DNA of 64,000 bases from Dryococelus australis (lineage: Eukaryota; Arthropoda; Insecta; Phasmatodea; Phasmatidae): contig CM057006.1 of NCBI GenBank assembly GCA_029891345.1, forward strand, positions 40,771,056 to 40,835,055, in the 5' to 3' direction. A program made the translations under genes and the position numbers. Shown here one piece after another: positions 234 to 61,065 of this stretch; within the stretch, counting starts at the first letter, position 1; every line of letters begins with the position of its first letter. A model generated the notes under the pieces. That model ran no database searches. It was not told where the DNA came from and saw only the letters and a list, made by a program, of their open reading frames with translations.

Positions 234-35252
<35,019 letters not shown>

Positions 35253-36929: not shown

Positions 36930-37235
36930 GCCGTTCACGATAAAGTGAGCCCTTTCGAAACCAACCTTAGAAATAAGTCACTGCTCCGATCTGCACATAT
37001 TTTAACGGGCTCACTGAGTGACATGTGCCCTCAGTTGGTAACGATGCAAAGAAATTAGTTCCGTGTTTTAACGTCGCATAAAAAGTGTTAGTTAACCATT
37101 TGTAATAAAATTATTTATTTCCCTTTCTGTTTTTTTTTATGCAGCTAAGAGAAAAGTGAGCGGATTTGTAGGGTATTATTTATCTAATAATTTCACAGTT
37201 TCACGTGACCGACGCATGAATAAAGTGATGAGTCC
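36930..37235. mobile_element. 419-bp MITE, 5' two-thirds
   Basis: GCCGTTCACGATAAAGTGAG onward matches copy 37793-38211 through to ACCGACGCATGAATAAAG, then similarity stops. The right end is missing. Confidence 0.65.
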
Positions 37236-37397
37236 GGTGGTGTGATAAAGGAGGGGGAGGGGGCAATTTTGAGTTCGTTTCGCCGCGACTCGTAACTTAC
37301 GCGTAGTATATATTTTGACTAGGAGAAGCTACGACGTTCGTTTAAGTTTTAATCGACAATTCTCGTCAAGATGAATCGATTGCGTGTATAAAAACAT

Positions 37398-37676
37398 TTG
37401 TGTGGCGTGGTTCTGGTGAAATTGTATGCGTTTAGTGTAAGAAAATTAAGAAAACTTAACACGATTTCAGCCTATACTCGTCAAAAAGCCAAGTCGAAAC
37501 ACAGAAATCGTATACGGTTGGAAAGAGCATCTCAAAAGCAATCCAGTGATACCCATAAAACCTTATATGATCGAGTGAAGCGGTGCCGGGAACGTGAAAT
37601 AAACATTAAGGCATCCGAGCTCGTAAACGTAGACGTATTCACGCAAAACAAACAGCCGTGTCCCCAACACAGCTAA
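37398..37676 (+). CDS. Unsupported basic open frame
   Basis: A 92-codon plus-strand frame with a lysine/arginine-rich middle (KAKSKHRNRIRLERASQK, then YDRVKRCREREI). It sits between two copies of the same MITE. I recognise no family. It could be a chance frame, or a remnant of an element that also carried the flanking MITE ends. Confidence 0.15.
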   Translation: MCGVVLVKLYAFSVRKLRKLNTISAYTRQKAKSKHRNRIRLERASQKQSSDTHKTLYDRVKRCREREINIKASELVNVDVFTQNKQPCPQHS

Positions 37677-37792
37677 CCCAATTGTTTTTTTCTTCGAATA
37701 ATTTGATGTCAAATACAGAATTATTTTGTTTTGTCGGGCCGTAATAACAAATACGAACTAAGTTGTACAGATGAAAATATTTATATAGTAAC

Positions 37793-38211
37793 GGTCGTTC
37801 ACGATAAAGCGAGCACTTTTGCAATCGACCTTAGATAAAAGTCACTGCTCCTACCTGCACATATTTTAACGGGCGCACTGCGTGAAATGCGCCCAGTAAA
37901 GCTGGTAACGATGGAGCGGAAAGTAGTTCCATATCTTAACATCGAATAAAAAGTGTTAGGTAACTATTTGTGATAACTTAAATTATTTCAATCGCTTTAC
38001 TTTTTTTTAATGCGCCAAAGTGCAAAAATTAGCAGATTTTTAAAATACTTACTTTTCTAATAATTTTACAGTTTCACTTGACCGACGCATGAAGAAAACG
38101 GTGATGCCCATGGAATTGATAATCTTACATAAGGCTGAAGAACACATAACGTGCATACAAATAGATCTTAAGCAGGGTTTTTTAAAAATGCTCATTTTAC
38201 CGTGAACAGCC
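37793..38211. mobile_element. 419-bp MITE, complete copy 2
   Basis: It runs from GGTCGTTCACGATAAAGCGA to TGCTCATTTTACCGTGAACA plus GC. Length and ends equal those of the copy at 17632-18050. Confidence 0.75.
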
Positions 38212-39161: not shown

Positions 39162-39743
39162 TTATTTCCTGCGATTTTTTTTAAGTGCATGAACTTTTTC
39201 TTGTGCAATTATATAAACGTCTTGAGCTAGCTCTGGGAATCTTCTTTCAGTCTGAATGATCTCATTTCTGTACGTAAGATGATCTTCAATATCTGTACAT
39301 ATCTGAAACAGTAAAATTTTGATTAAGTCGTGTATTTATGCGAAAAATTTACTCTCATTTTTTTTTTTTTTTTTTTTTTTTCTAGGAAAGCTTATTCACT
39401 GATAAAATATCTAAAAGTTGAACAGTAGGATGTGGTAATATAAACTAACACATTTTTTAGTGGTGAATGCGTTTAAGGCCATGTCACACTCAAATTTTTT
39501 TCCTTCGAACTCATTAAAATAAAGTTTATCAAGCGAAATTGGATGTTCGAACATCTCCCAAACGTCATTATTGTTGCTATTATTGTCTGAAAAAGTTGGA
39601 CGAGGCTCTTGTTTCCAACAAACATTTTCAATATTGGACTTTTTTTTTATGTACGACAGGTTCAGGAGTTCAGAATCGTGCATTGCGAAAAAGGTCGTTC
39701 CCGACATCACGAAACTCCAAAACGGTGAACAATATTCTGGAAA
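39162..39743 (-). CDS. Small unrecognised two-exon gene
   Basis: Two minus-strand segments join in frame. The first is 39743-39450, acceptor CTTATTTAG or internal start ATGTCGGGA at about 39707, donor TGT|GTTAGT. The second is 39302-39162, acceptor TTACTGTTTCAG, ending in a stop. If translation begins at the ATG the product is about 130 residues: MSGTTFFAMHDSELLNL, an Asn-rich patch, then HPISLDKLYFNEFEGKKF, and a charged helical C-terminus with DIEDHLTYRNEIIQTERRF. An AATAAA overlaps the stop codon region. I do not recognise the family. It lies 3.9 kb upstream of the gene B promoter in the same orientation. Codon use and clean splice signals support a real gene, but no homologue was recalled. 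Confidence 0.45.
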
Positions 39744-40189
39744 CTAAATAAGATTATGGAAACAATTAGTTTATAAAAAATTTCTCTAAGCTTGAATGCT
39801 ATTTGAAGTGATTTTTCTCGAAATAATAATATTAAGAACTCAGAGGTATTATATTTCTTTGTGCACGATGCATGGGAATACAACAGCAGTGTCCCACTTT
39901 AAATATAACTTTCTAATTAAAAATTCAGACTATATATCCCTAGTAAAAACATTTGACAACGTGCCGCATTTTATAACAAATTTTGTCGAATGGAAAATTT
40001 GATAGTCGTATTTCGTTATCAAATTTTATTGAAAAATGTTTTAAGGTGAAAATTTGACAGACAGATAAGTGCTTCAACGACCACCTAGCTCCTAACTGCG
40101 AGCGTCTCGCAAACATAGGCTGCTACCACGTAGAGCTGTTCGGTTTCATAAATATTTAATATCGATTTTTTCAAACAATTGTTATTTTC

Positions 40190-45071: not shown

Positions 45072-45205
45072 AAATTAACTCAACATTGAAGCGACTGCGG
45101 TCCCATTTAAAATTTCTCTATCCACTGAGCCACTAAGGCCCCACTTGATATAGTTCTATCCACTGAGCCACTGCGGCCCCACTTGGAATCTCTTTATCCA
45201 ATGAG

Positions 45206-45255
<50 letters not shown>

Positions 45256-45407
45256 AGTTACTGCGGCCCCATTTAACATAGTTCTATACACTAAGTCACT
45301 GCGGCCCCACTTAACACAGTTCTATCCACTGAACCACTAAGGCCCCTCTTGGAATCGCTCTATCCACTGAGTCACTGTGGCCCCTCTAAATTAACTCAAC
45401 ATTGAAG
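45072..45407. mobile_element. Tandem tRNA-head SINE-like insertion with 20-bp target duplications
   Basis: Perfect 20-bp direct repeats AAATTAACTCAACATTGAAG lie at 45072-45091 and 45388-45407. Between them are about seven ~38-bp units of the type CACTGCGGCCCCACTTGGAA plus TCTCTATCCACTGAGC, with a (TA)n(CA)n tract after unit three. The complement, GTGGCTCAGTGGATAGA, is a tRNA A-box-like head similar to the SINE heads elsewhere in the window. No SINE body is present. Confidence 0.8.
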
Positions 45408-46262: not shown

Positions 46263-46799
46263 ACTCACTGCACTATAGTAGTGGGGAAAAGTTCCCTGAT
46301 ATCCAAGGGCATAATGGCATAGAGCTCGGAGTCCTGGAGCCGCCACGTTATTACATCATGTGACCGCCATATTGGATGTCATTGACTATTTACCCCTGAC
46401 CTTTGACCCCAAAACTCTAAAAAAAACCCGCAAAAACACAGATAAATAAAAAAATCTCTCAAAAAATCCTAAAAATTGTAAAAAAAAAAAAAAAAAATCT
46501 TTAAAAATTCCGAAAAAAATTATTTTAAAAATTCCTTAATTTACCAGAGGTCACCCCCTAGCCCATACCCATTCCGCCATCATGTTAGGCGACCACCATC
46601 TTGATATAAATCACCCATCCGCCATATTAGATGCACACTACCTGGACCTTGATCCCACGATCTTGAATGACCATGAAAACAAAATCTCGAGAAAAAACAT
46701 CAAAGTCAAACATACGACATTACAGACTACTACTGCCATATTAGATGCAAAACACCTTGACCTTGACCCCATGACCTTGATGTAACACCTTAAAATGTA

Positions 46800-48630
46800 C
46801 GTCGTTTTGGCTATATCATTTACATATAAGTTTATTGTTTATTTTCCACACTTTTAGATTTGTGTACTATTTTCTGTACGAACGTATGTAAATACTGTCA
46901 CACATATAACCCAAGTAATTTCAATTTATGTATTTATTAATTTTCTTGCATATTTCGTTTCTATTCTTATTCTCAGATTTAGGGCTTTTGCTTTATTTGT
47001 ACTGTGGCAATCATATATTGTTTAACTTCAGTAGGGTAGCTGGTTTACGTTTTTATATTTTTCTTATGTGCAATCAATTCAATTTTTTTTGGTCTTGTTT
47101 TGTGAATATTTCTGATTTTATTAAATTTTTGTATCCATTTCGAAACCCTATATTCTAGGATATTCAAGAAGTTAGGCCGTTGAAAGTGGTTCATGAGGTG
47201 GGTTTGAATGCTTTTAGCTTATTATTGGCCCACAGGTTTAAACCCCGACTTGTGATTGGCTGGAATGGCAGACCTCTTAATTTAGCTCCAGTCAATCTTG
47301 CTTAACGCTCTCTCTTCCATCAGCAGCCATACCAGATAGGCGTAGGAGAGTACTACCTTCGCCTGTAAGTGGGCGAAGGGCAGGGGTTTTGATTAGCTTT
47401 TAGGGCGTTTCTATACTTCCCTCGACTCCAGATTTATATATTGTTTGATACCAGCACATAAAGAGTGCTTTAATTGCTCTTCCGCTAGGTTAATGAGTTA
47501 GGAGGTAGAGAAGTAGCATAGTACGACGTAGCGTATCTTTTTTCATATTGTAATTTTACGTCGTAAAGCACTCTAATCGACCCTGCAATGCATCGAGAGC
47601 CATCTACGAGCCCTGTCCTACATAATAAAGATGAATCCAGCTGCGAGAGCGACGAGATTACCCTGAAAATCAGGTTGACAAATTAGTATTAATTTCGCGG
47701 AGCAGAATCGACGATCATTACGGCAAGTGTAGTCCGCCATATTGAATGCTATAAGTACTGTTTGACCCATCATTAAAGTTTGCTCACGGGAGACCAGAGA
47801 CAGATTCCCAGTGCCCTACCGAGCTAGATACAGTAATTTAAAACATTTAATCAAGTGCCTCATATTATTTTAGTAATCTGAGAAACAGTACATTTTGATT
47901 AAATTTAATTTTTGCGAATGAACATGGACTTTGACCCTGGCAAATCAAAACGTTAACTTGGGGATAATTTATTCTAGGCATGGCCACTTTTCAACTGCAA
48001 ATAGGAGTGTAATGTTTTCCATAAGTTCTTTGCTAATTGCCACCAGGATTTTTCAAACCCCAGTTTTAGAAAAGTTGAAAGAATTCTAATAAATATCAAC
48101 AGTTAAAGCAGTTATGCCAGGTGTCCGTTGTTTCTCAGTAGCGTTGCATTTTCCCATGTTCCTCGTATCAGTGATTTCATGTTAGTTTTTCATTATCTCG
48201 GGACTTGTGCCAAGGGATCTTGTATACACACGTGTGTCTATGTAAAGTGTGTTTAGCTTTGACGGAGTATTCCCTGCTCGGCCCAGACTAGCGCTGGGCG
48301 CACAAGTGATTACTAACATGGTGGTTGGTAATGGTATGTTCCAGAGTGAATGCGAATACCATAGGTAGTTTGGTCCGGGCTGGTGTCGAAGAAGCGAGCC
48401 AGCATAAATATCTGTTTACTTATCAGCGAGAGTGAGTCTGGCAAGAACTTTTTTACAATTATAAGTTTATGCGCCAAAGAACCCAGCTAACTAACCAACT
48501 TGGGTAACCGCTGCAATCTACATACACACAGTCTCCTGTTCCGCGTGTGATATACTCTACATAATGTATGCACACTGTGAGACGTACACACAACATATAA
48601 TATTCTACAGAATTCTGCATACTTTACATT
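46800..48630. other. Insertion in the left arm of the foldback element
   Basis: About 1.8 kb that interrupts the ~115-bp tandem units of the left arm and is absent from the right arm. It includes a block at 47170-47700 with different composition and ACATAATAAAGATGAATCCA near 47620, which could be part of an LTR. I could not assign it. Confidence 0.4.
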
Positions 48631-48639
48631 GAATGACGT

Positions 48640-49360
48640 TAGAAACGAAAGTTCGAGAAAAAGCCCACAAAAGTCAGTAAGCAGAATACTACCGCCATAT
48701 TACTATATTATTATACTACCGCAGACTACCTCAACCTTAACTCCACGACCTCAAATGACCTTGAAAAACAAAAACCAGGAAAAATAAATCAAAGTAACAG
48801 CATATTACATTACAGACCATTACCGCCATATTGTATGCAGACTACCTTGAAATTGACCTCATGATCTAGAAAAAACTCGAGTAAAAAACATAAAGGTCAA
48901 CAAGCATATTACAATACAGACGAATGCCCCCATATTAGATTCAGACTAACTCGAGATTGATCCCATGACCTTGAATGATCTAGAAAACAAAAATTCTAGA
49001 AAAAATATATATCAAATTCAACAAGCATATTACATTACACATTACTACCAACATATTAGATGAAGACTACCTCGACCTTGACCCCATGACCTTGAAAACA
49101 AAAACTCGAAAAAAATTATGAAACAGTCAACAAGCATATTGCATTACAGAATATTGCCACCATATTAGATGCAGACTAACTCGACCTTGAATCTATGACC
49201 TTGAATGACCATGAAAACGAAACCCGAGAAAAAGTACATAATAATCAGCAAACATAATACATTAAAGACTACTACCACCATATTAGATGCAGGTTACCTC
49301 GACCTTTTACCCCGTGAAATTGAATGACCTTGAAAACAAAAACTCGAGAAAAAATCTATG
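48640..49360. repeat. ~115-bp tandem units, left arm
   Basis: About six units, each with CCACCATATTAGATGCAGAC, then TACCTCGACCTTGACCCCAT, GACCTTGAATGACCTTGAAA and ACTCGAGAAAAA. Two more units lie at 46575-46790. Confidence 0.85.
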
Positions 49361-50175
49361 CGAAGAGGCAGAAGCTAGCCGAGACAATGCATCTTTCACA
49401 GCATCCGTTGTCAAACTAAACCTCTCAGCCGACCTCCCAAACTGCTTATTACATACGAATATGGAAGCCCTATGACATCATATTGACATTGAACCAACCA
49501 TACTGCGCTATTAATACGTTGTGCAGACACCAATCCCCCCAAACATTCACAAGCTTTACACCAATTCACCCAATTATCCACAATTTTCACACAAATCAAC
49601 CCAATCAATCACAATCTTTACACCAATCCACCACAGTCATTCACAATCTTTATGCCAATCCACCCAATTTTTCACAATCCAGTGGTGGTGCTGGAGGTTT
49701 GCAAAAGTTTGATGGAAATATTTCTAAAGATTGATCAAAGGATTGGGATTGGGAATGCAGTGCTGATTGCGGTGCTGGTTGTGATTGTGGTGCTAAGTGC
49801 GGTGCTGATTGCGATTGTGGTGCTAATTTATGTGTGTGTGTGTGTGTGTGAAGCGGGGGGGGGGGGGGCAGAGATCCGCAAGTTAAAATAAATTCCCTAT
49901 ATTTTAAAATAAAATTATGTAGTCCTACCTCCAAAAGCTGAATGGCGAACATTTTATTTAATAATCTTGCTTTCAAAAAGTATATATCCAGGTCCCTCGG
50001 CATATTTTATTGCTTCCTGGGTAAACTGTAATTACACTTCGCAATAAAAGTGCCCAGAACTACAGCAGGCTTCCACTACGCTTCGCCATTGGTCGATGTG
50101 CAACATGGACTTTGAACTGAACAATGTATAACCACGACAAGACACCACCATGCTCCCCAATAACATTCATCGTCG

Positions 50176-51380
50176 CGTGAAAATAACCTTCTCATGCCGA
50201 CATGCATTTTTAACATAGGTAAAAACTCGATCGCAGAATCGGCACTGACGGCAACCAGTTAGCGATTATGCAGCTTGTAGTTCCGTGATCGTCGAGGTCA
50301 AAAGGCAGCCCTCCATATTCGCAATTCATCTTCGCGGTATGGGAGCACTCTAAAATAAAACCCACAGAAGAAAACACACAGATACTTATGTAACAACATG
50401 TTATTTAAATATGCTTGTAGGCATATGTATATATAAGTACAGAAATTTGAATTAATTTGATATGTACATATTTATATACTTATACATAATTATAAATAAA
50501 TTAAATTTGAAAACAATTTTATATTTACATACCTATATCTACATAACTGTTGTAACACCTGGTTTTTCTTCCTAATTTGATGAATGGTGTTAGCGTAATT
50601 TGAATATCACAAGTGGTACATAATATGTAAAGTTTTATCTAGTTCAACAGGGAAAAATTGTTGTATAAATGCTAAACAGATCCCTTAGTTGTAAATTTGT
50701 GATATTTGACCCTGTATTGATCTATGATGTTTTCTTTTGCCAACTGTTTTTTAATGCAATGTTAGGAACGTTTTAAGGTTGTTCTAAAAAGTATTAGTTT
50801 ATGAATTCAAATAAGTAAGAGGTTCCGATTTAATGAGTTTTTACTGAAGTTAAATTAATATTTATGATTAATTTCTAGAAGTGTTCTTTTTATCATTAAA
50901 TGTTGTCAATTACAAGATACAGAAGTATGTAAAACAACAAAGTAACTATATAATATTGAGTCGTCAGTAGCAAACGTGTCGACGACGAACTTTCAAAGAG
51001 ATTGAGAACTTCGTCATTTGGTTTTCCGAATAGCTTCTGGTCAGACACTATCATCCATTTTCTGAAGAAGGTACGTCACGAGGAATAGTTCCACCTTCGG
51101 GAAACACGGTCACCGGTCGACTCCAGGACCGTGAATGAAGGAAGGATGTCGGACTACCTATGCCGTCATGGAATCGCAGTCGACAGGCAGTTGTGATGTA
51201 CCAGATTCGAACCCAGAAGGAGAACCGCAGATCTAGCTGTGGACTACTTTTTTTTCTCATCAACAGATAAGTCCAGCGTACACCATATTAATTATGAACC
51301 TTTCGCGAATGCTAATTAGTAGTCAGTTTTCGAAGGGTGTTCCCGAAAGTTAATTGGAGTTCATTTCTTATCTATGACTG

Positions 51381-51455
<75 letters not shown>

Positions 51456-51863
51456 TTGTACATTCCGTAATATTATTCTGTTATGGTAGAAAGTTAAATG
51501 TTGTGCACTTTGATTTGTCGGAGATTGTGCCATATTAATTTTTTTATTTTAACAGTTCAGGGTAGTAGCACTGAATTTTACACTGTATATAAATAAATTA
51601 AATTGAAAATAATTTTGTATTGCATCAATATTACTTTAAATGCATATAATAATAATAATAATTAGTAAACATAATATTAATTTTATACATATATACACCT
51701 ATATGTAAGCAATAAATTTAAAATAATTTTATATTCGCAAATTTATATACTTATACATATTTATTTACCTATTCATAATTCTGTAGAAAATAAATTGAAA
51801 TTAATTTTGTAATAACATATTTACATGTACGTATATATATATATGTATGTGTGTATATATATA

Positions 51864-51952
<89 letters not shown>
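50176..51952. other. Loop of the foldback element
   Basis: AT-rich, with a long (TA)n run at 51384-51451 and another mixed TA/TG run from 51834. The 51051-51263 frame on the minus strand has no recognised family. No transposase is visible. Confidence 0.5.
51384..51451. repeat. (TA)n microsatellite
   Basis: About 34 pure TA repeats. Confidence 0.95.

Positions 51953-51954
<2 letters not shown>
51834..51954. repeat. (TA)n/(TG)n microsatellite
   Basis: TA repeats interrupted by two TGTGTG blocks, ending in ACACAC. Confidence 0.95.
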
Positions 51955-51955
<1 letters not shown>

Positions 51956-52789
51956 ATGAACAATTGGCAAGCATGGTGGTGGCCTGTCGTGGTATGCATT
52001 GTTCAGTACAAAGTCCATGTTGCGCATCGACCAATGGCGAAGTGTAGTGGGAGCCTGCTGTAGTTCTGGGCACTTTTATTGCGAAGTGTAAATACAGTTT
52101 ACCCAGGAAGCGATGAAATGTACTGAGGGACCTGGATATATACTTTTTTTACGAGTGGTATTATTGAATAAAGTGTTCGCCTTTCATCTTTTTGAAGTAT
52201 ATAATATTTTTAAATAGAGAGAATTAATTTTAACTTGCGACCCACACACACACACACACACACACACATACCGCACTTAACACCACAATCGAAATCAGCA
52301 CCACACTTAGCACCACAATCACAATCAGAACAGCAATCAGCACTGCAATCCCAATCCCAATCCCCATCTTTCGAACAATCTTTAGAAAGATTTCCATCAA
52401 TCTTCAGCAATCCTACACCACTACCACCACCACCACCACTGGATTGTGAAAGATTGTGAAATATTGTGAAATATTGGGTGGATTGGCATAAAGATTGTGA
52501 ATTATTGTGGCAGATTGGTGTAAAGGTTATGAATGATTGGGTGGATTGGTGAAACATTGTGCATGGTTGGGTGAATTGGTGTAAATGTAGTGAATGTTTG
52601 GAGGATTTGTGTCTGCACAATGTATTAATAGTGCAGTATTGTTGGTTCAATGTCATTATGCCATCATAGGGCTTGCACACTGGTATATTATAAGTAGTTG
52701 GGAGGTCGGCAGAGAGGCTTAGTTTGACAACGGATGCTGTGAAAGATACATAGTCTTAGCTAGCTTCTGCCTCTACACATAGATTTCTC

Positions 52790-53765
52790 TGCTTTCTATG
52801 CTTGCTGACTATTATATATTCTTTCTCGAGTTTTCGTTTTCAAGGTCATTCAATCATGGTTAAGATATTCTGCATCTTATATGGTAGCAGTAGTGTGTAA
52901 TGTAATATTCTTGTTGAATTTTATGTATTTTCCTCAAATTTTTATTTTCAAGTACATTCAAGGTCATGGTGTAAATTCAAGTTGTTATACATCCAATCAG
53001 GTGGCCGTAGTCTGTAATATAATATACTTGTTGCTTTTCATGAATTTCTACCCTGGTTTGTTTTCAAGTTCATTCAAGGTCGTGAGGTCAAAGTCGAGGT
53101 AGTCTGCATCTAATATGGCGGTAGTAGTCACTAATGTAATAATATGTTTGTTGACTTTTATGAATTCTTCTCTGGTTTTTGTTTTAAGGTCACCCAAGTC
53201 GTGGAGTCAAGGTCGATGTAATCTGCATTTACTATGGCTGCAGTAGTCTGTAATGTATTATGCTTGCTGACTTTTATGGATTTTTCTCAAGTTTTTGTTT
53301 TCAAGGTCATTCAAGGTCATGGGGTCAAGGAAAAGGTAGTCTGCATCTAACATGGCGGCAGTAGTTTTTAATGTATTATGCTTGCTGACTTTCATGAATT
53401 TTTCGTGTTTTTTCAAGGTCATTCAAGGCTATGGGGTCAAGGTCAATGTTGTCCCTATCTAATATGGCGGTATTAGTCTGTAATGTATTATGCTTGCTGA
53501 TGTTTATGTAGTTTTCTCGAGATTTTGTATTGAAGGTCATTCAAGTTCATTGGGTCAAGGTCATGGTAGTCTGCATCTAATATGACAGGAGTAGACCGTA
53601 ATATCATATGCTTGTTGACTTTTGTTTTTTTCTCGAGTTTTTGTTTTCCAAGTCATTCAAGGTCATGGGCTCATGGTAGAGGTAGTGAGCATCTAATATG
53701 GTGGATGAATGATGGTGGTCGCTTACCAAAATGGTGGAATGGGTATGGGGTAGTAGTGATCAGTG
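52790..53765. repeat. ~115-bp tandem units, right arm
   Basis: About eight units in the opposite orientation to the left arm, with TTCAAGGTCATTCAAGGTCA, TGGGGTCAAGGTCGAGGTAG and TCTGCATCTAATATGGCGGT. Spacing between successive ATGGCGG cores is about 113-118 bp. Confidence 0.85.
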
Positions 53766-54758
53766 GTAAATTTAGCTATTTTAAAATACTTTTCAATAAT
53801 TTTTAAGAATACATTTTTAATATTATTTTATTAATTTTTAATTATAGATTTTTTGGAATTTTTGAAATTTTCATGTTTTTTTATTTTTATTTTTTATTTT
53901 AGGGTTCAAGCTCAAAGTCAAAGGTCATGCTCTTCTGGCTCGGTGTACTTAATTATTCTAGCCAGAGACGCTAATCTCTTTCACTTACTCCAGGAAAAAT
54001 TGGAATTTTTGTGGATCCTTTTGAATATTTATTTTCTAATTTTTAATATTTTTTTTCGGAATTTTCGAATTTTTTTTTTTTACAATTGTTTGGATTTATT
54101 CAGGATTTTTTAAAAGGCTTTTCACAATTTTTTAGGTTTTCTGAGGTCAAAGGTCAAGTGTCAAGGTCAGTGGTAATGGGTCAGGGTTAAATGATCAATT
54201 ACAGACAAGATGGCGGTTGGGTTACAAAACAACATGGCAGCTACCCGGCTCTGAGCTCCGTGTCTTGATGGCATTGGCTACTAAGGAACTTTTCCCTTCT
54301 ACTCGCTATACTATAGAAAAGTTCTAGGAACTCATTTTGTAATTTTTCTAAATTAATATTACTTTTATAATAAAATGTGAAGTTTACTATAAACTTGTTA
54401 TAGACATGATAGTGATAGATTTGTAAAGCAGTAGAAGTTTGAAGGTGTAAGATGTTTTGAGCCCAATATGCTTTTGTCCATATTACCAACAGGTAGTATC
54501 TAAAAAGTGTAATGGTTCTACTTGTAAACAATAAAATTTAGGAAAATGAAAACAATACATTATGCAAAAAAAAAAAAACAATTAGTTGCCTAGGCAATAA
54601 ATACACAAATTATAGACTTCTTCCAACTTCACTGGCTACCATGAAACCTGCAAATGGATATACCTGCTTTAGGGACTCCACTAAAAATTTAAAAGAAGAA
54701 TTTATACCGCTGTTTGTAAATTGTTAGAACATTTTCTAAGAAACGAGAGTAAGCACAA

Positions 54759-57451: not shown

Positions 57452-59286
57452 TCAAGACATACTGTTCACATGTGGAATCAAACTTTTAACTTCAGAACAG
57501 TGTTCAGAACCTAATGGAAGAATTATATTTTCTGTAATGCCACTTTGGAGAGCTTTCAAGCTCATTCCAATGGCATAAAATTCATTGACTGGTTCTGCAA
57601 TAGCATTTGAATCATCTGGGGACATTTCTATTTTCTGTTTGATCTGTGGCAACATTAGCCTTGAAGGATGATTACTGTTTCTATACAAATTGCTGTATTG
57701 AGGGGCAAATCTAAATTTCTTGGTGGTAAAGGAGATATTGCAGTTTTCAGTAGGTCTTGATTTTAACACAGCATTTTCTTGTAACATGCTGAGGTATGAA
57801 ATGCTTGTATTCCACAGACTTTTAGGTTGATCACCTGAACATATGTCCTCTGTTGAGACTTGGGATCCCCTCAGTTCAAAGTCTGGTAATTCTTGATCTG
57901 TATGATATCTCTTGAGAATGTTCTTGATTACTTGTCTATGTGATAGACCATTATTCCAGGTGAATGGAAGCTTCTCAGAAGAAGAGTTTTTGGTATTTTT
58001 TGTTGTGTTTTCACTTTCTTTAAATATTTGCAATGTGTTTAATAGTTTTTCGTAACTAAGTTTTGTCTGTGCAAGTTTCTGTATCCACTGATTGTAAACC
58101 TCAGTTGCTCTCAGTGCAGAACCACTGTTTTTCCAGGTATTTGAATTGTGTTTTTTTATTTGGGAATCCTCATCACTTAAATGTCTGTCTTCTTTTTCAA
58201 CATCACGTACCCACAGTTTATCCATGCTATTTTCTTCTGTATTTTCTGATATTGTGTACAATTGTAATTTTGTCTGCATTGTAGTAGTATTTTCAGCCTG
58301 TTTGTGATATTGTGTAGGTAAGTTTGCTGCACCTCCAACAGAAGTATTTTTTTCCAAAATGTTTTTCCCTACAAAATTTGTATTGGACAAATGCTTAACT
58401 TTTTTGTCCATAATTTTTTCATTTTTTCTTGCAACCTCTTGTAAAACTTTACGAACTGGCATGGCTTCCCTTGTCTCCGTGATTACATTTGCTTGTTCTT
58501 GACTTCTCCACATAATTTTTTCTTTTATAACTTCAGCATGCTTGATTTCTTTGTCTTCGCCATACTTTTTGTGTATTGGTGATCTTCCATCTTTATTATT
58601 GTATGTTGGTGGTGATGATCCAGTTTCCTTAGTGTGTATAGGTGATATTTCAGTTTTATTGAAGACTTCTGGTGATGTTTCATTTTCATTGAAGTGTGTA
58701 TGTGATGTTTCATTTTTATTGAAGTGTGTTGGTGATGTTCCAATTTCGTTGAAGCGAGTTAGTGATGTTCCATTTTTATTGAGTTGTGTTGATAATGTTC
58801 CATTATTATTAATGCGTGTTGCTGATGTTTCATTTTTATTCATGTGTGTTGGCAATATTTTAGTTTTATTGCCATGTTTTGGTGATGCTCCAATTGTATT
58901 AAAGTAAGTTGGTGATATACCCTTATTTATCAGTTTTTCTGGAGAGGATAGCTGCTTTGTGATCACAAATTTAGTTTCCACATTGGAATTTAAATTAATT
59001 TTTTGGCAGTGTTGAAAATAATGTCTTGGTTTCTGAGCCAGCTGTAATGGTGATGTTGCAGTTCTATTCTGGTCATCAAAGATTCTATTTGACGTACTAC
59101 CATTTGTATGCCTAACTGTATTACATTTGTTGTCAGTATTTTTCAAAATTTTTTGTGTTGTGACGTGAGCTGCATTTTTCTCAGAAGTAACCTTTGATGT
59201 TTGTTCATTTTCAGCTGCCTCTTCAGATTTATTTTCATGACTTGCATCGTCACAGGAAAATATGGCTGTGCTGCATAGAAAGCTTT
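57452..59286 (-). CDS. TTLL3: TTLL3-like gene A, long low-complexity last exon
   Basis: This is an open frame of about 611 codons entered through the acceptor CTTTTTACAG, with a stop at 57452. The sequence is Asn/Thr/Lys/Ser-rich with no recognised domain. At about 58565-58915 it holds roughly eleven degenerate 10-residue repeats of the type SPTHFNKNET. Vertebrate TTLL3 also has a long divergent C-terminal tail, but no residue-level similarity is evident. The length of the open frame in AT-rich DNA argues that it is translated. It could alternatively be a separate gene, but no promoter or good start is visible. Confidence 0.7.
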
Positions 59287-61065
59287 CTGTAAAAAGATTC
59301 AAAACACCATCAGCTATATTTTTAATAATAGGTTTTACAATGACAGATTATGTTGCATAATTTGTTTAACATAATTGAAGGACACATTTTCGTCCTCACA
59401 GTTACCCATCTCCAAGGAAGGATTTGTTTCTATTCGTGGAGTGACATTTACAGTATCTGGTGCAGGACACATGTTTTCATATGGTTCTGCAACTTCACTA
59501 CCTGGACTAAAAATACAGTCTGGGAAAGGTGTATCCATCTCACTGTCTTTTAGCCTAACCTTATTTGTGCGTTTAACACTGCCGCGATACAAACCTAACT
59601 TTGTTATGTCTTCTTTGCACATCTTCTGCCCTCGAACTGACAGCGACACACTGTGGTAAGGAGGAGCGGGCGGGATATGTTGTTTGAAGATAAGTTCAAA
59701 CATCCCAGTGTCTGCCTTCCTATCTGTTCGTCTATCTATTACCACTGCAACACACAAACATAAGTGACTGTGATGCAAAGTAAATTATCTACATCCAAAG
59801 TTTTTCCCTCTCCATATCATCACTCGGATAAAACACCTATAATACCATAAACAACTTCTAAATGGTATAGCTATATTGCTAGTTTAGCTGTACTTTGTAT
59901 GGATTTCCCGTACAGACCTACTGTGCTGCAATGGAAAATGTTATTTCACAAATCATAAAATTCATTGGGTACTTTTAAACTTCATAATACTGCAATATTT
60001 TTATCCCCTAATTACCTCGATTATCTTATCAAGGTATACAATCCATACAAAATGTAATACAGAGATTTATAGTTACATGTTTGAACATCACATAATGATC
60101 ACATTTTTTCTGCAAGCATCCTTATACCTTTATAATTGGTTAGGTGATGTAGTTAATCTTAAAAAAAAAAAATAAGTACAATGCATGGAGCAATGTACAC
60201 AAAATATAATTGTTATGGGTAAAACTGTACGTCTGGCAACATTATTGTCATTTGGCAATGCAGAATTGATAAAAAAAAAATAACTCGAATCCCTTTGTGA
60301 GAATTGAGTGAATTTTGTGTGCACTCATTCTCTACACAAACTTGGTTAATTTCGTGTCCAGTGCACATTATGAGACTTTCATTAAGATTGCAGTGTCAGC
60401 ACAATTCCTCACATTACTCTTAAAGTAGGGGCATGGAACACAACTCGGACAGCGACAATTTGTGTGAAAGGTTTTATCACAATGCCACCAAATGACCAAA
60501 CTATCAGCATGCATAAAGTTATTGTTTGTAGTTTGGGAGGTGAAAATAAATATCAGTGAATTAAGTAAATAGTTCTACCTCTTTTATAAATTAAGTTCTA
60601 TTATTTACTTTTCAATAAGTAATAGAGTTTGGTAATATTTTCTTCTGAATGTAAGAAATATATAAAAAATTGTGTAATTTGCATATTTTGTAATGGCGTG
60701 GTCATTTCTGAAAAATTACCTGTATATATTTATACAGGCAAAACATATACTTACATAAATTGAAGACTACTATGCCGGTTAACTCACAACCTAGGATATT
60801 AACTGACTAACCTTTGATGACATCTTCCAGGCACTGTGCAGTCATGCGTGCTGTGACACTAGTTGTTCCAATCGTGCTGGGACAAGAGTTGATCTCAATA
60901 AGCCACGGTTTGAATGCTTCATCCAAAATGAAATCTGCCCCGAATAGCTCAAAACAGTTGTTATTGCGGTCTATGTTTTCCTGAGAAGCCAGTAGTGATC
61001 CTATTATGCTCTGACGCATACCAGGGTATATACGCTGGCTCCACATTTCTGCTTTACCCAGTGTT
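57452..61065 (-). CDS. TTLL3: TTLL3-like tubulin glycylase, gene A (C-terminal exons; 5' part off the right edge)
   Basis: This is the C-terminal half of a TTLL3-type tubulin glycylase. Three minus-strand exons are visible: 61065-60812, 59744-59406 and 59286-57452. Exon one of the visible set carries FELFGADFILDEAFKPWLIEI, with the metal-binding Asp and the E-x-N of the ATP-grasp active site, and TTSVTARM. Exon two begins VVIDRRTDRKADTG...FELIFKQ, the end of the catalytic domain. The last exon is a long low-complexity tail. Junction phases agree (2, 1, 1). N-terminal exons must lie right of the window. The catalytic remnant is intact, without stops. Whether it is a tandem paralogue of gene B or the displaced second half of the same gene cannot be decided here. 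Glycylation of ciliary tubulin is the family function. Confidence 0.85.
59406..59744 (-). CDS. TTLL3: TTLL3-like gene A, end of catalytic domain
   Basis: The acceptor ends TGTGTTGCAG. The residues VVIDRRTDRKADTGMFELIF close the TTL domain as in other TTLL3 proteins, followed by a poorly conserved region. I placed the donor at ATGG|GTAACT because it is the only nearby GT in phase with the long final exon. If it is not used, the frame reads on to a stop at 59335, giving a shorter isoform. The intron to the last exon would be 119 nt. Confidence 0.7.
59780..60780. other. Gene A intron, unassigned
   Basis: AT-rich intron between the catalytic exon and the exon at 59744. No exon or named repeat is visible. 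Confidence 0.5.
60812..61065 (-). CDS. TTLL3: TTLL3-like gene A, catalytic exon
   Basis: The acceptor ends GTCTTACAG and the donor is AAAG|GTTAGT. Length 254 nt, phase 2 in and 1 out. It encodes TLGKAEMWSQRIYPGMRQ, SLLASQENIDR, FELFGADF, PWLIEINSCPS, TTSVTARM and QCLEDVI. These are the second half of the ATP-grasp fold. No upstream exon could be recognised between here and 64 kb. Confidence 0.92.

What the first reader, a model, noticed from the sequence alone, without database searches (positions are those of the whole stretch)
46263..54312. An ~8-kb giant foldback element
Inverted blocks recur in mirrored order over 8 kb, with arms of about 3.9 and 2.4 kb around a 1.8-kb loop. The arms contain tandem short units, as in Drosophila FB elements, but the composition and outer ends (CTATAGTA...) match nothing I know. 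No transposase is visible, so mobility would depend on another element. This may be an undescribed family.
Basis: partly seen in the sequence, partly recalled or inferred. Interest (0 to 1): 0.75.

Follow-up and report, generated by a model that had tools for sequence, protein, structure and literature searches.

The report
Foldback relic of a giant Polinton
The 8-kb mirrored structure is a decayed mobile element without working genes whose ends, 6-base target duplication and leftover gene pieces tie its family to the virus-like Polinton (Maverick) transposons found in the same genome.

Summary
The foldback is real: 46277-54303, inverted arms of 3.9 and 2.4 kb, 1.76-kb loop. About 1.85 kb of the left arm is a nested LTR-like repeat; with it left out, the arms align in one piece (2070 columns, 73%).

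It is an interspersed family. Ends begin AGTAGTAGG; a 6-bp target duplication fits 36 of 48 positions in eight two-ended copies (no other tested length above 36%), and one relative has an empty site inside this window. (AGT)2 ends and 6-bp duplications are published Maverick/Polinton traits.

The same 3.4-Gb genome (TTAGG telomeres) holds many Polinton genes, mostly broken. A 17,010-bp element with AGTAGTAG ends carries one, and a profile of such ends puts 11 of its 13 best hits on foldback termini. Remnants of the zinc-finger start of the Polinton polymerase gene lie in several foldback loci; in the window this match is weak (E 0.056) but sits at the arm/loop junction.

Best reading: a non-autonomous, foldback-type Polinton derivative, formerly copied and integrated by helper Polintons (inferred), now decayed. 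Snap-back copying as the origin of the arms is inferred.

The parts
46271..46276 (.). left target-site duplication CACTAT
   Evidence: pairs with CGCTAT at the other end, 5 of 6
54304..54309 (.). right target-site duplication CGCTAT
46277..50185 (+). left arm (contains the nested repeat 46781-48628)
51942..54303 (-). right arm
46277..46420 (+). left terminal tip, AGTAGTGGGGAAAAG...
   Evidence: profile hit 100.9 bits (this end is one of the 54 rows of the profile)
54160..54303 (-). right terminal tip, reads AGTAGAAGGGAAAAG... inward
   Evidence: profile hit 102.0 bits (also one of the 54 rows)
46781..48628 (+). nested LTR-like repeat (TGT...ACA) with TTGA duplication, not part of the original element
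   Evidence: leaving 46791-48628 out restores arm continuity
48721..49359 (+). array of ~118-bp units in left arm; related units also at 46619-46780
52839..53701 (-). array of ~118-bp units (7.4 copies) in right arm; the element as a whole is rich in TCAAGGTCA and CCGCCATNTT words
49527..49679 (+). 31-bp minisatellite, left arm (right-arm counterpart 52459-52579)
49740..49850 (-). 30-bp minisatellite whose minus strand reads APQSQSAPHLAPQSQ: probably the decayed coding linker of the Polinton polymerase gene
   Evidence: L037 has similar repeats in frame after zinc fingers
52253..52363 (+). inverted copy of the 30-bp minisatellite
49975..50130 (+). inner arm module, 93% complementary to 51993-52148; query 51950-52240 has 3377 candidates genome-wide
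50186..51941 (.). loop
50185..50329 (-). probable remnant of the 5' end of the Polinton zinc-finger/polymerase gene: ATG at 50329 (MNCEYGGLPF...) and, in another frame, CRFCDRVFTYVKNACRHEKV at 50244-50185
   Evidence: (E 0.056 in 8.6 kb); not reported at E<=1 in the search of all loci
39711..39873 (+). uninterrupted relative of the repeat into which the L019 foldback inserted (empty site, single CAGAGG)

Best explanation
It is a decayed, non-autonomous, foldback-type derivative of a Polinton (Maverick). Shown: Maverick-type ends and 6-bp target duplication, insertion into a precise site (for one relative), dispersal as a family, related ends on a Polinton-sized, gene-carrying element in the same genome, and remnants of the 5' part of the Polinton polymerase gene in several family members. 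Inferred: full-length Polintons supplied the protein-primed polymerase and the integrase that copied and inserted it. Also inferred: the long arms are not ordinary terminal repeats but an inverted duplication of the polymerase-side end, made when a displaced strand folded back and was copied, as in defective genomes of protein-primed viruses (recalled), followed by amplification of tandem units.
For: Ends: AGTAGTAGG kept at about 70-90% or more per position in the end alignment, flanks diverging at once. Target duplication: 36 of 48 positions at length 6 in 8 two-ended copies, other lengths 3-12 at 0.16-0.36; with the C6 element 41 of 54 against a shuffled mean of 17.2, 0 of 20000 shuffles reaching it. 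Empty site for the L019 copy. Published: (AGT)2//(ACT)2 ends and 6-bp duplications of vertebrate Mavericks (PMC8097293, passages). Polinton genes here: PF03175 54 matches, 0 of 14 control genomes. 5.2 kb from one of them an inward-facing end starts AGTACTAGG. Two such ends on C6 face each other 17,010 bp apart, AGTAGTAG, GCTGCT/GTTGCT, and enclose a gene matching P0001. P0001 matches lie inside 6 of 40 such end places within 20 kb and outside none, 0.035 expected (one of the 6 is the query element and two are the ends of the C6 element, so four elements are new). Profile of 15 such ends: 11 of 13 hits at E<=1 in 317 kb lie within 8 bp of foldback termini. Gene remnants: L052 (E 5e-6, then the next reading frame, E 0.001, colinear), L037 (E 2e-5).
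Against: No coding Polinton with a foldback-type tip was found: of 111 foldback-tip places none has a listed P0001 match inside within 20 kb and 1 has it outside; of 59 tips none lies within 25 kb of a listed polymerase match. All these lists are top-ranked samples. Tips are only distantly alike: the foldback profile hits 12 of 16 Polinton ends at E<=10 (7 below 0.1, best 3e-4; one of the 12 is not at the tip); the Polinton profile hits 20 of 57 foldback termini at E<=10, best 0.001. TCAAGGTCA, 16 times in the window element, occurs 0 times in the C1 Polinton end. The window's own zinc-finger match is weak, frame-shifted, and not reported at E<=1 when all loci are searched. C2H2 fingers are common in host genes (recalled); P0001 itself is below Pfam's cut-off. 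L016 shows 1 of 6 duplication matches, L019 and L030 4 of 6. The integrase was not looked for. One genome only.
Confidence: 0.82

Rival explanations
1. A Foldback element of the FB/Galileo/Tetris sort, moved by a MULE- or P-type transposase.
For: Long, internally repetitive inverted arms around a variable middle, with tandem units, as described for Galileo and Tetris (passages).
Against: Galileo copies are flanked by 7-bp duplications; FB by 9 bp (recalled). Here length 6 fits 36 of 48 positions, length 7 9 of 56, length 9 26 of 72. Ends begin AGTAGT as in Mavericks.
Confidence: 0.04
2. A separate cut-and-paste superfamily with 6-bp duplications (others are said to exist; recalled) that captured a piece of a Polinton, or of a host C2H2 gene, in its middle.
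For: Foldback tips and Polinton tips are only distantly alike; no coding Polinton with foldback tips found; the zinc-finger match in the window is weak.
Against: Two independent links: the ends (11 of 13 hits at termini) and the gene remnants, which in L052 include the stretch beyond the fingers and the start of the next frame. In the window the remnant reads toward the nearer (left) end, as in the C1 and C6 elements.
Confidence: 0.1
3. A local inverted duplication of host DNA, not mobile.
For: Arms only 73% alike; microsatellites and an LTR-like insert in it.
Against: Dispersed copies (all 40 scored places, its own included, of 672 candidates match the left end), fixed termini, 6-bp duplications, an empty site for a relative.
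Confidence: 0.02

Closest known systems
Polinton/Maverick (with protein-primed DNA polymerase)
   Same: AGT-repeat ends, 6-bp target duplication, terminal inverted repeats of hundreds of bases, remnants of the zinc-finger/polymerase gene reading toward the nearest end
   Different: 8.0 kb (6.2 kb without most of the nested repeat) instead of the 12.7-24.6 kb reported for intact vertebrate ones; no intact genes; arms of ~2 kb make up most of the element
Galileo and Tetris foldback elements of Drosophila
   Same: long arms with tandem units inside, variable middle (passages)
   Different: 7-bp duplications and P-superfamily transposase for Galileo; autonomous partner of Tetris not found; end sequences not compared here
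Tlr elements of Tetrahymena
   Same: Polinton relative; once suggested to be a non-autonomous derivative of Polintons, a view that paper disputes (passage)
   Different: Tlr share the integrase gene with Polintons and encode capsid proteins; here no intact gene. Tandem repeats in Tlr ends are recalled only
Defective genomes of protein-primed DNA viruses with inverted end duplications (recalled)
   Same: shape expected from fold-back copying of one end
   Different: I saw nothing of the kind for Polintons in the listings; one search was read as a listing only; here integrated and decayed

Membership tests
Polinton/Maverick | 6-bp target-site duplication | tested here: met
   36 of 48 in 8 copies; window copy 5 of 6; empty site of L019
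Polinton/Maverick | 5'-(AGT)2 ... (ACT)2-3' (or AG-type) ends | tested here: met
   (window left AGTAGT, right AGTAGA); definition from PMC8097293 passages
Polinton/Maverick | terminal inverted repeats of tens to over a thousand bases | tested here: met
   ~2-kb arms in the window; outermost inverted repeat 83-837 columns in L012, L016, L018, L019, L030, L042; L014 palindromic throughout
Polinton/Maverick | gene for protein-primed DNA polymerase B | tested here: not met
   only a probable 5' remnant at 50185-50329 and linker-like repeats
Polinton/Maverick | integrase, ATPase, protease and capsid genes | tested here: not met
   no intact gene: 13 ORFs of 80-181 codons in 46263-54312; they were not scanned for families, and decayed pieces of these genes were not looked for
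Polinton/Maverick | length about 13-25 kb | tested here: not met
   8027 bp; 6189 without 46791-48628
Foldback (FB/Galileo) | long internally repetitive inverted arms | tested here: met
Foldback (FB/Galileo) | target duplication of 7 bp (Galileo) or 9 bp (FB, recalled) | tested here: not met
   length 7 gives 9 of 56, length 9 gives 26 of 72
Foldback (FB/Galileo) | P- or MULE-type transposase in the autonomous partner | not tested
   no search for these transposases was made
Other superfamilies with 6-bp duplications (recalled) | their own transposase and terminus | not tested
   recalled only

The most novel reading that the evidence does not exclude
Polintons generate their own defective-interfering-like parasites: fold-back copying of the polymerase-side end makes elements without working genes and with kilobase arms (ends, subterminal region, and the linker of the polymerase gene in mirror image) that are replicated and integrated in trans, spread widely, and tax, or as hairpin-RNA sources silence, the parent Polintons.
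Probability: 0.35. Interest if true: 0.85.

Novelty: new variant of a known kind. Interest (0 to 1): 0.66.

Why it matters
Foldback elements have been tied to P- and MULE-type transposons; a foldback family built on a self-synthesising, virus-like Polinton would show that the shape can arise from a replicating DNA parasite too. It would give Polintons a short satellite and make the question of whether Polinton enzymes act in trans testable from genome data. It also suggests a practical rule (AGTAGT ends plus 6-bp duplication) for naming unclassified long inverted repeats in large genomes.

Tried and rejected
Rejected: local inverted duplication (copies, duplications and an empty site exist); FB/Galileo kinship (duplication length). 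The idea that the 118-bp unit is a copy of the tip: against six units the left tip scores 15-18 with shuffle maxima of 13-20, the right tip 10-13 with maxima 14-16, so suggestive on one side only and not claimed. Joined flanks of the eight two-ended copies were compared with the fetched DNA: apart from L019, alignments reaching across the junction were weak (L012 61%, L016 66%) and were not followed. Foldback tips beside listed polymerase or P0001 matches: none inside. Pfam on P0001, P0002, the C6 ORF piece and two window ORFs gave no match above a curated cut-off. The loop and 52600-52800 were never searched successfully.

Limits: one genome, not named; each search scores only its best 40-150 candidates, so copy numbers are unknown. 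The query for the nested repeat began ten bases inside it, so its boundaries rest on TGT...ACA and TTGA/TTGA alone.
Full report
What is there. Self-comparison of the window confirms the mirrored blocks. Family ends, found by profile, put the element at 46277-54303. The left arm is 46277-50185, the right arm 51942-54303, the loop 50186-51941. In the left arm a TGT...ACA repeat (46781-48628) is flanked by TTGA on both sides; its query matched at all 40 scored places, its own included, of 928 candidates. With 46791-48628 left out the element is 6189 bp and the arms align as one stretch, 121-2071 against 3828-5800, 2070 columns, 73% (ten bases of the repeat stayed in). Both arms carry ~118-bp, 31-bp and 30-bp tandem units.

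It is a dispersed family. The window lies in a 3.415-Gb genome of 646 contigs. Exact (TTAGG)8 occurs 79 times forward and 318 reverse, 0 for the reversed control; the places listed lie at both ends of C1 and C2, and in C4 and C5 about 1.5-2.2 Mb from a contig end. TTAGG telomeres are typical of arthropods (recalled). The left 188 bases match at all 40 scored places of 672 candidates, the right end at all 40 of 533, the tip of another copy (L027) at 40 of 3299, 72-85% away from its own place, the inner arm module at 40 of 3377, 79-88% away from its own place; each count includes the query's own place. None of the listed copies is near-identical to its query, so what was sampled looks old; within the window the arms differ at about a quarter of their positions.

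Ends and target sites. Aligned ends share AGTAGTAGG at the terminus and unrelated flanks beyond it. In eight elements with both ends in hand, length 6 is the only duplication length that fits: 36 of 48 positions (0.75), other lengths from 3 to 12 at 0.16-0.36. Individual values: L018 and L042 6 of 6; window, L012 and L014 5; L019 and L030 4; L016 1. The joined flanks of the L019 copy align across the junction with window 39711-39873 (72%, E 2e-22), followed by a second colinear piece (E 1e-8); the window has a single CAGAGG and no insert there: an empty site.

Link to Polintons, from the ends. Passages of PMC8097293 give 5'-(AGT)2//(ACT)2-3' as the commonest vertebrate Maverick end, with 6-bp duplications. 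The genome holds many polymerase genes of that kind (PF03175: 54 matches, 91 scored of 6288 candidates, 0 of 14 control genomes; 49 of the 54 with stops inside). Beside one on C1, an inward-facing end AGTACTAGG lies 5.2 kb away and matches the foldback profile at E 0.0011 in 15 kb. A search with that end scored 40 places, its own included, of 2976 candidates, two of them facing each other on C6; their termini read AGTAGTAGAG and AGTAGTAGGG, 17,010 bp apart, with GCTGCT/GTTGCT. The foldback profile hits 12 of the 16 ends so read at E<=10, best 3e-4, 7 below 0.1. The reciprocal test used a profile of 15 of them on 317 kb of foldback loci: 11 of 13 hits at E<=1 sit within 8 bp of one of 57 foldback-terminus rows (about 54 places), where a random hit would do so with probability 0.0015; at E<=10, 20 of the 57 are hit.

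Link to Polintons, from the genes. P0001 is a zinc-finger ORF directly 5' of the polymerase on C1 (P0002 follows it, then the PF03175 match). A piece 76% identical to it lies in the C6 element, which is also among the matches (150, all that were scored, of 10,456 candidates). Against the 40 end places P0001 falls inside within 20 kb 6 times and outside never, 0.035 expected; one is the query element itself and two are the two ends of the C6 element, so four elements are new. In five of the six it reads toward that end, the sixth being the far end of C6. In foldback loci, tblastn finds remnants: on the inner side of the tip in L037 (E 2e-5), L056 (0.003), L041 (0.007), L020 (0.01) and L011 (0.057); outside the tip in L014 (0.057) and in L052 (E 5e-6, followed colinearly by the start of P0002, E 0.001). 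In the window alone, E is 0.056 at 50244-50185, exactly where the left arm meets the loop; when all loci are searched together it is not reported at E<=1, and the window's only listed match is elsewhere (31308-31370, E 0.41). The block around it is shared by nine other loci, one of them (L039) the same place as L019; L052 has part of this block just before its P0001 match. In L037 the fingers run in one open frame of 202 codons into SAPQ-type repeats; L020 has the same order with stops; the window's 30-bp minisatellite reads alike. So the arms seem to include a piece of the polymerase gene in both orientations, and on the left it reads toward the nearest end.

How it probably worked. Shown: ends, insertion, dispersal, ancestry signals. 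Inferred: replication by protein priming and integration by enzymes supplied from full Polintons; origin of the arms by fold-back copying of the polymerase-side end. The asymmetry fits this: the gene start is present once, in the loop, while the linker is present twice, inverted.

Motifs. The element holds 16 TCAAGGTCA (0.1 expected in shuffles) and 8 CCGCCATNTT (0.1 expected). In L012, L014, L016, L018, L019, L030, L042 the counts are 1, 1, 5, 6, 8, 1, 3 and 1, 0, 6, 6, 3, 2, 1. The C1 Polinton end has 0 and 3; two 9-kb window controls have 0 of either. The words resemble FTZ-F1/ERR and YY1/Pho sites (recalled); whether any protein binds them is open.

Novelty. Three papers hold any of six terms for non-autonomous or derived Polintons/Mavericks, each only 'Polinton-derived' (listing). 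Listings and passages of PMC8504770 and PMC6035795 show fragmentary or abundant Mavericks but no foldback ones in what I saw. The founding Polinton papers (recalled) were not consulted and Repbase is not among the tools, so novelty there is not tested.

Noticed in passing
27029-29973: Satellite-like array of a 57-bp unit, about 52 copies, 88% matches; a similar unit again at 31420-31804.
   Followed up: no
45090-45384: 38-bp minisatellite (CACTGCGGCCCCACTT...) interrupted by (TA)18.
   Followed up: no
35020-35091: GC-rich 21-bp tandem repeat inside a 178-codon ORF on the minus strand; no Pfam match above cut-off.
   Followed up: partly
57452-59302: 616-codon minus-strand ORF with no Pfam match above cut-off, overlapping a 30-bp tandem array at 58571-58916.
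   Followed up: partly
17628-18051 and 36933-38208: Repeats also found in the fetched C1 piece outside its Polinton end (L059 248-1220) and in ten or more fetched loci.
   Followed up: no
L051 and L052, left of 1457: Foldback tips sit beside polymerase-gene remnants in sequence partly shared with foldback loops: nested or rearranged elements.
   Followed up: partly
46277-54303: Words TCAAGGTCA and CCGCCATNTT far above shuffles in this foldback and several others; possible binding-site arrays.
   Followed up: partly
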